Source of the DNA: Actinomycetota bacterium
GTDB taxonomy: Bacteria; Actinomycetota; Thermoleophilia; Solirubrobacterales; JACPNS01
Reading direction: 5' to 3'
DNA: 64,000 nt
NCBI GenBank assembly: GCA_016213645.1
Contig: JACQZY010000020.1
Location: forward strand, 62,001-126,000
The position numbers and the translations under genes were made by a program. Of this stretch, positions 21,865-58,429 are shown in pieces. Every line of letters begins with the position of its first letter. Positions within the stretch are counted from its first letter, which is position 1. A model generated the notes under the pieces. That model did not search any database. It was not told where the DNA came from and worked only from the letters and a program-made list of their open reading frames with translations.

Positions 21865-23400
21865 TCAACGCGCCGAAAACCGAACACGCGGTCCGGTAAA
21901 TGGCTCGCGGGCTCCGGTCACGCGCTGGGTGACCGACGTGTACACCGAGTACTCACCGCGCTTAAAGGCATCCGGCAACACGCGCATGCGCCACCGGCGC
22001 GCGCCCTTCGCGCGCAGCCAGCGCGGCGAGTTGCAGTCGTCCGCGACGAATCCTCGACGCGTGCCGCTCCACCACGCGCAGGCCGCTCCCGCGCGACGTC
22101 TCACGGCCACCCGCACGCTCGCCACGCCAACGCTGTCGGCGCGGGCGCCGCCGCTGACGCGGGCAGGCCCGGCTCCGGCGCGAAAAACCGTGCGAGCCTT
22201 CGGCCAGACGTAGCTGGTGAGCGGATCTGAACAACCGTCACGGTTTGAATCCGTCAATGGATTCGTCTGGGGACATGGATCGCTGCCGTCAGGCAAACCG
22301 TCGCCGTCGTCATCGTCGTCACAAGCGTCGCCCGCGCCGTCGCCGTCGCGATCTACCTGCTCGGTGTTTGCCAAACCGCGGCAGTTGTCGCGGGCGTCGA
22401 TCGCGCCGTCATGGTCGGCATCGTCGTAGCGCAGCCGCACAATGCGGTTGTTTGCGGCATCGGCCACGTAGACGAACGCCCCGGGCGCGACCGCTATGGA
22501 GGATGGCGCGTTGAACTGTCCTATACCCGCGCCCGTGATCCCGAGTTCGCCAAGCGGCGCAAACCCCTCCGCTTGAGAGCCGAAAAGCGCCACGCGGTCG
22601 TTGCCGCTGTCGGCCACGAGCAAACGGCCGGCGGCGTCGCTCGCAAGTCCCTTTGCCGCGTCAACCTGGCCGGCGGCGGCGCCCGCGGCCACGGCGACGC
22701 CTGCAAAAGCGCCGCGCGCATCGAAAAACCTCACGCCGTCGCCCGGCGAGGATCCGCTGACGAAAAACCCGCCCACCGGATTCACGGCCAGACCGGCCAC
22801 CGGCCCCCACGGCAGCGGGTCGGTCACGCCGAAGGCAAAGAGATTGTCCAGCTCGCCGCGCGCCGGGTCGAACACCTGAACCCGCGCGTTCAGCGACTCG
22901 GCCACATAGAGGCGCGGCTCGTAGTCCGCGGCCAGAGCCGTGGGCCCGTTGATCTGACCGATCGCCGGTCCGGGTTCGCTGTCCACTCCGCGGTACTCGG
23001 CCCCGTTGTAAACCACGCCGAAGGTGAAGATCTTGTTCGTGGCGGCGTCGGCCACGTAGATGCCGAGCCGGTTGTCCACCGCCACCGCCGACGGATCCTG
23101 CAGCCGGCCCGCCCCGAACGTGATGAGCGGACGGTTGCCGTTGCGCGCGCTGTCGTAAACCTGCACGGCGCCGCCGCTTCGCAAGGGCACATACACGCGA
23201 CCAGCCGAGTCGGCGGCGATCGAACCCGGGTTCACGCCCTCGGCCACGACTCCGTCCCACTCAAAGATCGCCGCGTTCGCGGCCGCCGCGCAAAACGACA
23301 ACGCAAACACCGCCGAAGCGAGCAGCGCGAGCACAACCGGCGTCAGCGCCGTGAAGGCGCGCCGGAACGCTGCGGCGACGTTGCTGAATGGCACTGGCAT
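21865..23400 (-). CDS. Secreted NHL-propeller protein with thrombospondin type 3 repeats
   Basis: 511 aa. A signal peptide (hydrophobic about 17-40, ending AANA) is followed by an NHL-type propeller of five to six blades, about 45-335, with repeats such as PSAVAVDNRLGIYVADAATN. Then come calcium-binding TSP3-like repeats (DADHDGAIDARDNC, DRDGDGAGDACDDDDDGDG). A C-terminal beta domain of about 110 residues follows. Extracellular, probably Ca2+-stabilised, with a binding or adhesive role. Start choice between ATG at 23400 and 23430 is uncertain; 23400 places the signal peptide at the N terminus. The frame stays open further upstream but is not convincing there. Confidence 0.8.
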   Translation of the reverse strand: MPVPFSNVAAAFRRAFTALTPVVLALLASAVFALSFCAAAANAAIFEWDGVVAEGVNPGSIAADSAGRVYVPLRSGGAVQVYDSARNGNRPLITFGAGRLQDPSAVAVDNRLGIYVADAATNKIFTFGVVYNGAEYRGVDSEPGPAIGQINGPTALAADYEPRLYVAESLNARVQVFDPARGELDNLFAFGVTDPLPWGPVAGLAVNPVGGFFVSGSSPGDGVRFFDARGAFAGVAVAAGAAAGQVDAAKGLASDAAGRLLVADSGNDRVALFGSQAEGFAPLGELGITGAGIGQFNAPSSIAVAPGAFVYVADAANNRIVRLRYDDADHDGAIDARDNCRGLANTEQVDRDGDGAGDACDDDDDGDGLPDGSDPCPQTNPLTDSNRDGCSDPLTSYVWPKARTVFRAGAGPARVSGGARADSVGVASVRVAVRRRAGAACAWWSGTRRGFVADDCNSPRWLRAKGARRWRMRVLPDAFKRGEYSVYTSVTQRVTGAREPFTGPRVRFSAR

Positions 23401-23430
23401 GGCGTCCGCACAACTTAACGACTTCGCCAT

Positions 23431-23828
23431 GCGAACCCGCCCGTCATGCATGCCGCCATGCGGGCCCCGTCTTACGGTGTCTCGAAAACGCGCGGAAGTT
23501 GGAGCATGGTCCACGCGTCGCCTTTTGGCCGCAGCCGACGATTGGGAGGCGTCGAGGCCAGCGGTCACCGGCCGTCCAGCGACGTTATCCCGTCGCCGAG
23601 ACTGGCTGTGAACCTGGTGCCGGCCGCTGCCACGCGACCGGCAGTCGCCTCGCTGTTGCCGTTGTCGATACGGATTCGCCATAGGTCTGCCTTGGAGAAG
23701 CCCCGCCACTGGGCCTTCGGACCCTTTAACCCGTGAACGAGTCGAACGGACTGGCGCGTCGGGCCAAAAAGTAATTGATCACCGCGATGATCGTCACATG
23801 CGGATGCAACGCGACGATCGACGCACAG
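23431..23828. other. Intergenic region between the NHL protein gene and tRNA-Leu
   Basis: About 400 bp. Several frames are open but have no family resemblance, start signal or consistent codon bias. GATCGTC/GACGATC about 15 bp downstream of the tRNA 3' end (minus-strand sense), followed later by a T5 run, could be a tRNA terminator. Nothing else is recognised. Confidence 0.35.
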
Positions 23829-23910
23829 TGCCCGGGGTGGGAGTCGAACCCACACGCCTCGAGGGCAGCCGATTTTAAGTCAGCCGCGTCTACCGTTCCG
23901 CCACCCGGGC
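23829..23910 (-). tRNA. tRNA-Leu (anticodon TAA)
   Basis: 82-nt class II tRNA. The acceptor stem GCCCGGG/CCCGGGC has discriminator A. The D arm, a 5-bp anticodon stem (GCTGA/TCGGC) with loop CTTAAAA and anticodon TAA, a long variable arm (TGCCCTCGAGGCG) and a T arm with GGTTCGACTCC are all present. The 3' CCA is not encoded. It reads UUA, the rarest Leu codon at this GC content, so it may limit expression of any TTA-containing gene. Confidence 0.95.
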
Positions 23911-24115
23911 CTGGCCGCGAATCCGATGGCAGGCATGCCTGCGCCGCACCGAAATCGGGCACAATGAAGGTACCGGCGCGGCCGGTCCGAGCGCGTGATC
24001 ACGCAACCGGGCCTTGGTCTCACGAGATCGATCGGCGGTCCGTCGCCGGTCCAGCCGAAACGACTGAAATGTGCGCAATGCTTAACACCGCGACTTTTCA
24101 CCCCCGGAGGTGTCT

Positions 24116-25651
24116 ATGTCGATAGATAAGGCGCATATGGAAGCTTCCGTCTTAAAAGAGCCCGGCTCGTCAGCCAGCGCGTTGGTCAGAGACCCACGCG
24201 CCGCGTTTCTGCGCCTTCAGTCAGACGAACGGCTGGTTACGCTGACACGGCGCGGCAACGAAGCCGCCTATGAAACGCTGATCGCGCGTTACCGCGCGCG
24301 ACTGCTGGCGTTTTGCCGTCACATGGTCGGATCCACCGAGGACGCCGAGGACATCTTGCAGGAGGTGTTCGTCTCCGCCTACCGCGCGATGCTCGCCGAC
24401 GACCGCGTACTCAACGTACGTCCCTGGCTTTACCGCATCGCGCGCAACCGCAGCCTCAACCACCTGCGCCGCCCGCGCCCGACCGGCGTGGACTCGATGG
24501 ACATCTTCGAGGGTGGCGCCGCCGTGGCCACGGCTGACCGCGTACACGACAAGCTCGATCTGGAAGATCTGGTCGACGACGTCAAGCGCCTGCCCGAGAC
24601 TCAGCGCACCGCGCTGATGCTGCGGGAGATGGGCGACCTTTCGTACGACCAAATCGCCGAGGCGATGGACACCTCCGTGCCAAGCGTCAAGAGTCTGCTG
24701 GTGCGCGCCCGCGTGTCGCTGGCCGAGGCCGCCGAGTCGCGACGGCTCTCATGCGACGAGGTGCGGCTGGAATTGGGCGCGGTGGCCGAGGGCCTGCAAA
24801 AGATGTCGGCTCCGGTACGCCGTCACGTCGGCGACTGCGACCGCTGTCGCGCCTTCAAGAAGGACCTCACCGTCACCAACCGCAAACTCGCCGTGCTGGC
24901 ACCCGTGGGCGGTCTGCTGGCGATTAAGAACCTGCTTGCGCTGAAGATTTTCGGTGGCGCCGGGGCGGGGGCGAGCGGAGGCTTTGGTGCCGCCACCGGC
25001 GCCGGTGGCGCGAGCGGCGCAGCCGGAGTCGCGGGAGCGGGAGCGGCGGCCGGCGGCGTGGGAGCCGGAGCCGCGGCTGGAATCAGCGCCGGGCTGGGCA
25101 CGATCGCCGTGAAGGTGGGTGCCGGATTGGCGACCGCCGCAATTGTCACCGGCGGAGTGGCCCAAGTGGCCAAGCACGAACTCAATACCGGCAAGATCGC
25201 CCAAAAGCCGGCCGTCACCCAGCGCGCCGAGTCGACCGATTCAGCGGCTTCCGGGGGCGTGGCACCAAAGGCGCCGGTCGTTGCCGTTCCGGTCAAACCG
25301 ATCGATCAGGATGCTAACCCGGACAAGGAGATGCCCGCCGACGAGACGACACCGGTCGCTGACAAGCCGTCAGATCCGAAAGACACGGATGCCGCCGGCG
25401 ATCAGCCCGCGGCGTCGGTAATCGACGAAGAGACAACGACCGTGGTGATCACGCCGGGCAACCCGGCCGCGGGACCGACCGGCGGGCCGACCGTCGAAGG
25501 CCCCGGCATGCCGGCGCCGGAACCGTCGGCCCCCGTCGCATCGCCACCCGCATCGCCACCTTCCGGCGCGACCGGCGCGAGTTCGGGCGTCGGCCCCACC
25601 GGGGGCGGAGCCGACGAAGAGTCGCCCGGCATGGTCGGCGCTGGCGGCTGA
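24116..25651 (+). CDS. ECF sigma factor fused to zinc-finger anti-sigma-like and membrane tail
   Basis: 511 aa, more than twice a normal ECF sigma factor. Sigma2 (about 49-117, with DAEDILQEVFVSAYR and RPWLYRIARN) and sigma4 (about 153-205, LPETQRTALMLREMGDLSYDQIAEAM) are intact. They are followed by a zinc-finger anti-sigma-like segment with C213, H237, C241 and C244 (HxxxCxxC). Next comes a long Gly/Ala-rich stretch with a TM-like segment near 340-360, and an acidic Pro/Thr-rich tail of about 150 residues. This predicts a sigma factor with its own inhibitor and a membrane or exported sensor tail. GGAGG is 6 nt before the ATG. tRNA-Leu lies upstream, in the opposite direction. Confidence 0.88.
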   Translation: MSIDKAHMEASVLKEPGSSASALVRDPRAAFLRLQSDERLVTLTRRGNEAAYETLIARYRARLLAFCRHMVGSTEDAEDILQEVFVSAYRAMLADDRVLNVRPWLYRIARNRSLNHLRRPRPTGVDSMDIFEGGAAVATADRVHDKLDLEDLVDDVKRLPETQRTALMLREMGDLSYDQIAEAMDTSVPSVKSLLVRARVSLAEAAESRRLSCDEVRLELGAVAEGLQKMSAPVRRHVGDCDRCRAFKKDLTVTNRKLAVLAPVGGLLAIKNLLALKIFGGAGAGASGGFGAATGAGGASGAAGVAGAGAAAGGVGAGAAAGISAGLGTIAVKVGAGLATAAIVTGGVAQVAKHELNTGKIAQKPAVTQRAESTDSAASGGVAPKAPVVAVPVKPIDQDANPDKEMPADETTPVADKPSDPKDTDAAGDQPAASVIDEETTTVVITPGNPAAGPTGGPTVEGPGMPAPEPSAPVASPPASPPSGATGASSGVGPTGGGADEESPGMVGAGG

Positions 25652-56930: not shown

Positions 56931-58202
56931 CTACTTCTTCGCCGCGGCCTTTGGAGCCGTCTTACGGGCGGCGGGCTTCGCGGTCGCCGGGGCGGTCTTG
57001 CGCTTCGCGGCACTTGCGCGTCCGGCACCGGCCTTTGTACGGGTGGCGCCGAGCTTCGGCTTGCCCGCGTACTTGGCGATGAACTTCTCGGTGTCGATAC
57101 GAGCCTGGGCGTCCGGCCGCTGGTTCTGCGGCGACTTCATCAGGTAGCTGGACGGGCCATCGAGCTGACCGCCGATGCCGCTGTTGAGGGCCAGCTTGCA
57201 ACAACGCACCGCGTCAATCACGATGCCGGCGCTGTTGGGTGAGTCCCACACCTCAAGCTTGAGTTCCACGTTCAGCGGCACGTCGCCGAAGGCCTGACCC
57301 TCAACGCGGATGTGCGCCCACTTGCGGTCGGTCAGCCACGGCACGTAGTCCGACGGGCCAATGTAAACATCGTCCGGCGGCAGCGTGTGGCCCATGATCG
57401 AGGTCACGGCGTTGGTCTTGGAGATCTTCTTGCTCTCCAGGCGCTCGCGCTCAAGCATGTTGTAGAAGTCCATGTTGCCGCCGACGTTCAGCTGCGAGGT
57501 GCGCATCATCTTCACGCCGCGGTCGCCGAACAGCGTGGCGAGCTGACGATGCACGATCGTCGCGCCTACCTGGCTCTTGATGTCGTCGCCCACGACCGGC
57601 AGACCGGCCTTCTTGAAGCGCTTGTCCCAGTACGGCTCACGCGCGATAAACACCGGGATGCAGTTGACGAAGCCGCAACCGGCCTCCAGAATCTGCTCCA
57701 CGTACCACTTGGTGGCGTCCTCGCTGCCGACCGGCAGATACGACACAACAACGTCGGTCTTCGTGTCCTTGAGGATCTGCACGATGTCGACGGTCTCGCC
57801 CGGAGCCTTCTTGATCTTCTGCTTGAGGTATTTGCCAAGTCCGTCATGGGTCATGCCGCGCTGCACGGTCACTCCCAGATCCTTCGGCACCTTCGAGAAC
57901 TTCATCGTGTTGTTGGGATCGGCCCAGATCGCCTGGCCAAGATCCTTGCCGACCTTCGTGGCGTTGATGTCGAAGGCCGCGGAAAACTCGATGTCGCTGA
58001 TGTGGTATCCGCCGAGATCGACGTGCATCAGGCCGGGCACGTCCTCCTTGGGGTCGGCGTTCTTGTAGTACTCGACTCCCTGCACAAACGCGCTTGCGCA
58101 GTTGCCGACGCCGATGATCGCCACGCGGACTTTGTCACGCTGGTAGCGGCCTGTGCCGTTTGTGCTCTTGCCGTTGCTGCCGTTCTTGGGGGCAGGACTC
58201 AC
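56931..58202 (-). CDS. ino1: Inositol-3-phosphate synthase
   Basis: 423 aa. NAD-binding [13 protein letters not shown] is at the N terminus. The actinobacterial/archaeal signatures [41 protein letters not shown] and [10 protein letters not shown] are present. It converts glucose-6-phosphate to inositol-3-phosphate. A C-terminal tail of about 50 residues is rich in Lys, Ala and Pro. The start is GTG, fixed by AAGGAAGGAA about 8 nt upstream; earlier in-frame codons are not coding-like. The CDP-alcohol phosphatidyltransferase that would use its product lies just upstream. Confidence 0.95.
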
Positions 58203-58429
58203 TGGGGATTTCCTTCCTTCGATTACGGGTACGTGCGATCGCGATGAAGTTCGTGGCGGTCGTTGCCGGGGGCGGCGAGCGGCCGACGCGGAAAACAATC
58301 TGACGGGGCGCGAGGTCGCGATCGGCCCGCGCATCGTCAACGGGCCGAGGATAGAGGGTGAGACACCCTCAGCGGGCGAAAGTTACATTTGAGGCATCGC
58401 CCGCCGCAGTCGCGGCCGGCCACGACGAC

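What the first reader, a model, noticed from the sequence alone, without database searches (positions are those of the whole stretch)
24116..25651. Sigma factor carrying its own zinc-finger anti-sigma domain and a membrane/exported tail
An intact ECF sigma region is followed in one chain by an HxxxCxxC zinc finger, a Gly/Ala-rich membrane-type segment and an acidic Pro/Thr-rich tail. This would tether a sigma factor to the membrane with a built-in inhibitor, so activation needs proteolysis or conformational release. ECF fusions of this kind are known, but the low-complexity tail is unusual.
Basis: partly seen in the sequence, partly recalled or inferred. Interest (0 to 1): 0.62.

Follow-up and report, generated by a model that had tools for sequence, protein, structure and literature searches.

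The report
Sigma factor with built-in zinc inhibitor
This bacterial gene joins a transcription-starting sigma factor to its own zinc-type inhibitor, a probable membrane anchor and a long floppy tail; the design is already known from Streptomyces, but this version is near-universal in one order of soil bacteria and seems to switch on itself and genes for exported proteins.

Summary
One 504-511 aa chain carries ECF regions σ2 and σ4, a zinc anti-sigma (ZAS) domain with all four ligands (C213, H237, C241, C244), a hydrophobic helix, a Gly/Ala linker, a weak TM-like helix and a Pro/Thr/Ser tail. The start is probably ATG 24137, not 24116. The architecture is known: Streptomyces ECF52 proteins (SCO4117 type) have the same order of parts plus a carbohydrate-binding module, and ECF48/52/53 are the reviewed class. 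By tree and domain content the window protein is not an ECF52. Its family is in nearly every Solirubrobacterales genome sampled, usually beside tRNA-Leu(UAA), and was not seen elsewhere at E<=1e-60. The tail's acidity is not conserved; its Pro/Thr/Ser/Ala composition is. New here: an ECF-type promoter, GCAACTT-N12-SGTGTY, lies just upstream of 27 of 29 orthologs, implying autoregulation. Across 111 genomes the same motif precedes exported-protein genes far more often than background (26 of 42 against 23%). Most likely mechanism: a one-protein sigma/anti-sigma receptor at the membrane, released by proteolysis, controlling itself and exported proteins. The membrane anchor and the release step are the weakest links.

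The parts
23828..23910 (-). tRNA-Leu(UAA), conserved divergent neighbour of the sigma gene
   Evidence: ARAGORN; beside the gene in most ortholog loci
24090..24114 (+). ECF-type promoter, GCGACTT-N12-GGTGTC, probable autoregulatory site
   Evidence: Same motif at fixed spacing upstream of 27 of 29 orthologs; two matches in the window against 0.14 expected
24137..25651 (+).
   Evidence: Start position conserved as M/V/L-E-A/V-S in orthologs; promoter would overlap the 24116 start
24278..24472 (+). Sigma70 region 2 (residues 55-119, numbered from 24116)
   Evidence: PF04542, 5e-16
24584..24718 (+). Sigma70 region 4 (residues 157-201)
   Evidence: PF08281, 5e-14
24752..24856 (+). Zinc anti-sigma (ZAS) domain, ligands C213, H237, C241, C244 (CHCC type)
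   Evidence: Invariant in 31 sequences; hhalign 95.5% and 92.3% to ZAS domains that pass PF13490; helices modelled at pLDDT about 90
24887..24955 (+). Hydrophobic helix L-x4-P-V-G (residues 258-280), position of ZAS helix IV
   Evidence: P263 and G265 (nearly) invariant; aligned with ECF52 and paralog ZAS regions
24962..25096 (+). Gly/Ala-rich linker (residues 283-327)
   Evidence: Variable in length, low AlphaFold confidence
25097..25171 (+). TM-like helix (residues 328-352), invariant Lys333 then 16 uncharged residues
   Evidence: Conserved in 27 sequences; intermediate insertion score
25172..25648 (+). Pro/Thr/Ser/Ala-rich tail (residues 353-511)
   Evidence: Composition conserved, charge not; 41-44% identical to the closest relatives
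58362..58386 (-). Second copy of the promoter motif, 21 nt upstream of inositol-1-phosphate synthase (56931-58340, -): candidate target
   Evidence: Pattern match; PF01658, 1e-35. Not shown to be conserved in congeners

Best explanation
A one-protein signal receptor. The N-terminal ECF sigma (region 2 and region 4) is held off RNA polymerase by the zinc anti-sigma domain and the following hydrophobic helix in the same chain. A C-terminal helix tethers it at the membrane, with the Pro/Thr-rich tail outside in the wall. A signal acting on the tail or membrane part leads to cleavage (site-2-type protease) or opening. The freed sigma binds promoters of the type GCAACTT-N12-SGTGTY, first its own (positive feedback) and then genes for exported proteins. 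Shown here: sigma domains, ZAS homology with complete ligands, conserved anatomy, the conserved promoter at the gene, and enrichment of the motif before exported-protein genes. Inferred: zinc binding, inhibition in cis, membrane insertion and topology, proteolysis, and that this sigma itself reads the motif.
For: Sigma domains. CHCC ligands invariant in 31 sequences and profile match to bona fide ZAS domains. Same order of parts as SCO4117-type ECF52 proteins, for which truncation data led the authors to propose proteolytic release (PMC5826349). Conserved Lys + 16 uncharged residues and a Pro/Thr-rich tail in all complete orthologs. M50 site-2-type proteases in the genome. Promoter motif at 27 of 29 orthologs. 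Order-wide, 55 of 128 motif sites have a gene start 8-130 nt downstream against 3 of 44 control sites; of 42 non-sigma targets 26 have a signal peptide or N-terminal TM against 22.7% background.
Against: The TM-like helix is short and only marginally hydrophobic. AlphaFold did not place the ZAS on the sigma domains and gave low confidence beyond residue 280; the ZAS-only model has no PDB match. M50 proteases are universal (all 14 control genomes), so their presence says little. Close congeners carry only 0-2 sites of the motif, so no individual target is shown to be conserved. Paralogous sigmas might read the same motif.
Confidence: 0.58

Rival explanations
1. A cytoplasmic thiol switch. The CHCC zinc site loses zinc and forms a disulfide under oxidative stress, as in RsrA, which opens the chain and frees the sigma without proteolysis; the tail is secondary.
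For: CHCC rather than HHCC ligands, invariant; in RsrA the N-terminal Cys is needed for redox release (PMC4960319).
Against: Zinc sites are also common, apparently structural, in membrane-bound anti-sigmas (about 48% of them; PMC7406223). The candidate targets are exported sulfatases, subtilases and the like, not thiol homeostasis genes. The C-terminal anchor and tail are kept in every complete ortholog, and one own-genome paralog keeps TM and tail without the ZAS ligands (L003).
Confidence: 0.18
2. The protein is not membrane-bound: the Gly/Ala and TM-like parts and the tail form a long disordered cytoplasmic extension, and control is by in-cis inhibition plus transcription alone.
For: Insertion score 2.0 is weaker than the clear membrane proteins of the window; usually only 16 uncharged residues follow Lys333; low AlphaFold confidence in this part.
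Against: Position and length of the helix are conserved while linker and tail drift. ECF52-type proteins and two sigma lineages in this genome have an equivalent helix at the same place. Tail composition resembles wall-spanning stretches.
Confidence: 0.2
3. It is simply an ECF52, ECF53 or ECF48 member, with nothing lineage-specific.
For: Same order of domains as ECF52 proteins; ZAS and P-V-G helix alignable.
Against: 25% identity to ECF52-type proteins. The tree puts ECF52 on a separate long branch and the window protein in an order-specific clade (long branches, so not decisive). No carbohydrate-binding module.
Confidence: 0.15

Closest known systems
ECF52 sigma factors (SCO4117 of Streptomyces coelicolor)
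   Same: ECF sigma, zinc finger with CHCC ligands, hydrophobic helix with P-V, Gly/Ala linker, TM and Pro-rich stretch in one chain
   Different: ECF52 ends in a carbohydrate-binding module and has a stronger TM; sigma parts share about 25% identity and separate in the tree
ECF48 and ECF53 fusion groups of Actinobacteria
   Same: C-terminal zinc finger plus one or two TM helices, proposed activation by proteolysis (PMC8999054)
   Different: Sequences or group models were not available; membership not tested
RsrA / ZAS anti-sigma family
   Same: CHCC ligands with the fourth ligand 23-26 residues upstream of HxxxCxxC
   Different: RsrA is a separate soluble protein; here the domain is fused to its sigma and followed by a probable tether
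IutY of Pseudomonas putida (ECF243)
   Same: Sigma and membrane anti-sigma in one chain, activated by regulated proteolysis (PMC8999054)
   Different: IutY belongs to an iron-siderophore surface signalling system; no such partner was looked for or seen here

Membership tests
ECF sigma factors | sigma70 regions 2 and 4 without region 3 | tested here: met
   PF04542 and PF08281 over cut-off, no region 3
ZAS anti-sigma domain | CHCC or HHCC ligand set with HxxxCxxC | tested here: met
   C213, H237, C241, C244 invariant in 31 sequences
ZAS anti-sigma domain | homology to known ZAS / zf-HC2 domains | tested here: met
   hhalign 95.5% (E 1.5e-8) and 92.3% (E 5.6e-7) to sets that pass PF13490; the window sequence alone does not reach the Pfam cut-off
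ZAS anti-sigma domain | ZAS fold matches a solved anti-sigma | tested here: inconclusive
   Helices predicted, but no PDB match for the ZAS-only model
ZAS anti-sigma domain | binds zinc and inhibits the sigma | not testable with these tools
   Needs biochemistry
ECF52 | zinc finger, TM and Pro-rich extension after the sigma | tested here: met
   Same order of parts; TM marginal
ECF52 | C-terminal carbohydrate-binding module | tested here: not met
   No domain after the TM-like helix; no NPCBM match in the own genome
ECF52 | sigma part groups with ECF52 | tested here: not met
   25% identity, separate branch (long-branch caveat)
ECF53 / ECF48 | match to the published group models | not tested
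   Group models not held here
membrane-tethered sigma | a membrane-spanning helix | tested here: inconclusive
   Conserved but weakly hydrophobic

The most novel reading that the evidence does not exclude
Solirubrobacterales have built a large order-specific set of one-protein sigma/anti-sigma/membrane receptors that lack any folded sensor domain. The disordered Pro/Thr tail in the wall is itself the sensor, and the core member, kept in nearly every genome beside tRNA-Leu(UAA), adjusts production of exported proteins.
Probability: 0.2. Interest if true: 0.65.

Novelty: new variant of a known kind. Interest (0 to 1): 0.42.

Why it matters
It gives a near-universal regulator of a whole bacterial order, for which the literature searches found no study, a predicted promoter, a corrected start and a candidate regulon. 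That turns 'ECF with an odd tail' into a testable claim about how exported-protein genes are controlled in Solirubrobacterales. It also shows that the sigma/ZAS/TM fusion architecture occurs in several distinct sigma lineages, two of them in this one genome.

Tried and rejected
Single-sequence Pfam and NCBIfam did not name the ZAS, so profile-profile comparison was used. AlphaFold of residues 1-361 did not pack the ZAS on the sigma domains with confidence, and Foldseek matched sigma chains only. The ZAS-only model had no PDB match, and sequence searches of the ZAS region against PDB found nothing real. Gene neighbourhood gave little: beyond tRNA-Leu(UAA), neighbours vary between lineages. 'Acidic tail' rejected as a family trait. 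ATG 24116 rejected as the likely start. A regulon conserved gene by gene was not found: four congeners have 0-2 sites each, so individual targets such as inositol-1-phosphate synthase stay candidates. Literature searches on Thermoleophilia sigma factors found no study of this family.

Full report
What is there. The frame 24116-25651 (+) is open and codes for one chain with ECF region 2 (residues 55-119) and region 4 (157-201). It is followed by a CHCC zinc anti-sigma pattern, a hydrophobic helix, a Gly/Ala linker, a TM-like helix and a Pro/Thr/Ser tail. The window lies in contig C15 of a 2.4-Mb, 93% complete genome whose named relatives are Solirubrobacterales.

Relatives. A scan of species genomes found some 30 orthologs, 57-88% identical over residues 1-275, nearly all labelled Solirubrobacterales or related Thermoleophilia/Actinomycetota. 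In a class sample, 31 of 33 genomes of the same order match at E<=1e-60 and none of the other orders do. In a phylum sample only the order matches. In most ortholog loci the gene sits beside tRNA-Leu(UAA), usually divergent from it. Against the two closest relatives the sigma part, ZAS and TM-like helix are 78-96% identical, while the linker (56-63%) and tail (41-44%) drift.

The zinc domain. C213, H237, C241 and C244 are invariant in 31 sequences. Pfam zf-HC2 is only hinted at. Profile comparison with two sets of ZAS domains that do pass PF13490 gives 95.5% (E 1.5e-8) and 92.3% (E 5.6e-7), and the match extends into the following L-x4-P-V-G helix. RsrA work defines CHCC and HHCC types by exactly this fourth ligand (PMC4960319), and coupling analysis puts most of the sigma contacts on the helix after the zinc bundle (PMC7406223). 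That the window's helix plays this role is inference.

Membrane and tail. All 27 aligned sequences keep Lys333 followed by at least 16 uncharged residues, but the crude insertion score (2.0) falls between the window's clear membrane proteins (<=0.7) and the rest (>=2.7). I therefore call the anchor probable, not shown. The tail composition is conserved (71-86% P, T, S, A, G, V) over 127-227 residues while its charge is not. No folded sensor domain was recognised.

Known kind. Unnamed 8-10-Mb actinobacterial genomes, probably Streptomyces by inference, carry an SCO4117-like ECF52 protein with sigma, CHCC ZAS, P-V-x-V-I-G-W-F helix, Gly/Ala linker, TM, Pro-rich stretch and a carbohydrate-binding module. 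Papers describe ECF48/52/53 as zinc-finger plus TM fusions expected to be activated by proteolysis (PMC8999054; PMC5826349). The window family differs in sequence (25% identity), in tree position (with long-branch caveats) and in lacking the sugar-binding module. Four further own-genome sigmas of a second lineage (L006, L008, L009, L010) also have ZAS, a TM-like helix and a tail, and a closer paralog (L003) has a TM-like helix and tail but no ZAS. Across the order there are 2-27 matches per genome to the family profile at E<=1e-3; this count includes plain ECF sigmas. Of thirteen long paralogs fetched, all show the same arrangement.

Promoter and start. Upstream of 27 of 29 orthologs, 18-58 nt before the conserved M/V/L-E-A/V-S start, lies GCAACYT-N12-SGTGTY at fixed spacing. 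The scoring weights were taken from the same sequences, so the per-gene p-values are somewhat circular; the fixed spacing and position across distant genera are not. In the window it is GCGACTT...GGTGTC at 24090-24114, which leaves no room for a transcript that includes ATG 24116 and points to ATG 24137.

Candidate regulon. The own genome has 11 matches to the looser motif against 4 for the reversed control; five lie properly upstream of genes: the sigma itself, inositol-1-phosphate synthase and three exported proteins. In ten relatives the hits before gene starts were mainly the sigma gene and exported proteins. A scan of 111 genomes with the stricter motif gave 128 distinct sites examined, 83 outside coding, 55 with a gene start 8-130 nt downstream; the control gave 44 examined (of 63 listed), 14 and 3. 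Of the 55, 12 are the sigma gene and one a paralogous sigma. Of the other 42, 26 encode an N-terminal signal peptide or TM against 22.7% of 251 background genes, p about 6e-8 without correction for relatedness. Families among ten scanned include three exported sulfatases, a subtilase and an RTX-repeat protein. Gene calls and signal peptides were made with simple home-made rules, and the idea of exported targets arose from the first eleven genomes, which are part of the 111.

Mechanism. The simplest reading is a one-protein sigma/anti-sigma receptor tethered at the membrane, autoregulated, controlling exported-protein genes, released by proteolysis (M50 proteases present). A thiol switch on the CHCC site is the main rival. 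Zinc binding, inhibition, topology and release are inferred.

Verdict. It is a lineage-specific variant of a known kind, made more useful by the promoter and candidate regulon.

Noticed in passing
window 56931-58386 (-): Inositol-1-phosphate synthase gene with the same ECF-type promoter motif 21 nt upstream; next to a CDP-alcohol-phosphatidyltransferase-like gene.
   Followed up: partly
L006, L008, L009, L010 (own genome contigs C5, C26, C24, C1): A second, distant ECF lineage with an E/D-D-A-F/Y-Q-R motif in region 2, also fused to ZAS, a TM-like helix and a disordered tail.
   Followed up: partly
L003 (own genome C24:93696-97322): A closer paralog with TM-like helix and Ser/Asp-rich tail but no zinc domain: tether without ZAS.
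   Followed up: no
window 25451-25640: The end of the tail in this genus has GPT/GAT triplets resembling collagen-like repeats (also in L015 and L043).
   Followed up: no
window 21865-23709 (-): Exported protein with NHL repeats and thrombospondin type 3 repeats next to the tRNA-Leu.
   Followed up: no
L023, L039: Public MAG records titled Bifidobacterium breve carry clear Solirubrobacterales orthologs; probably mislabelled records.
   Followed up: no
L207 (G426:C170): A paralogous ECF sigma gene also has the promoter motif upstream, so cross-regulation between paralogs is possible.
   Followed up: no
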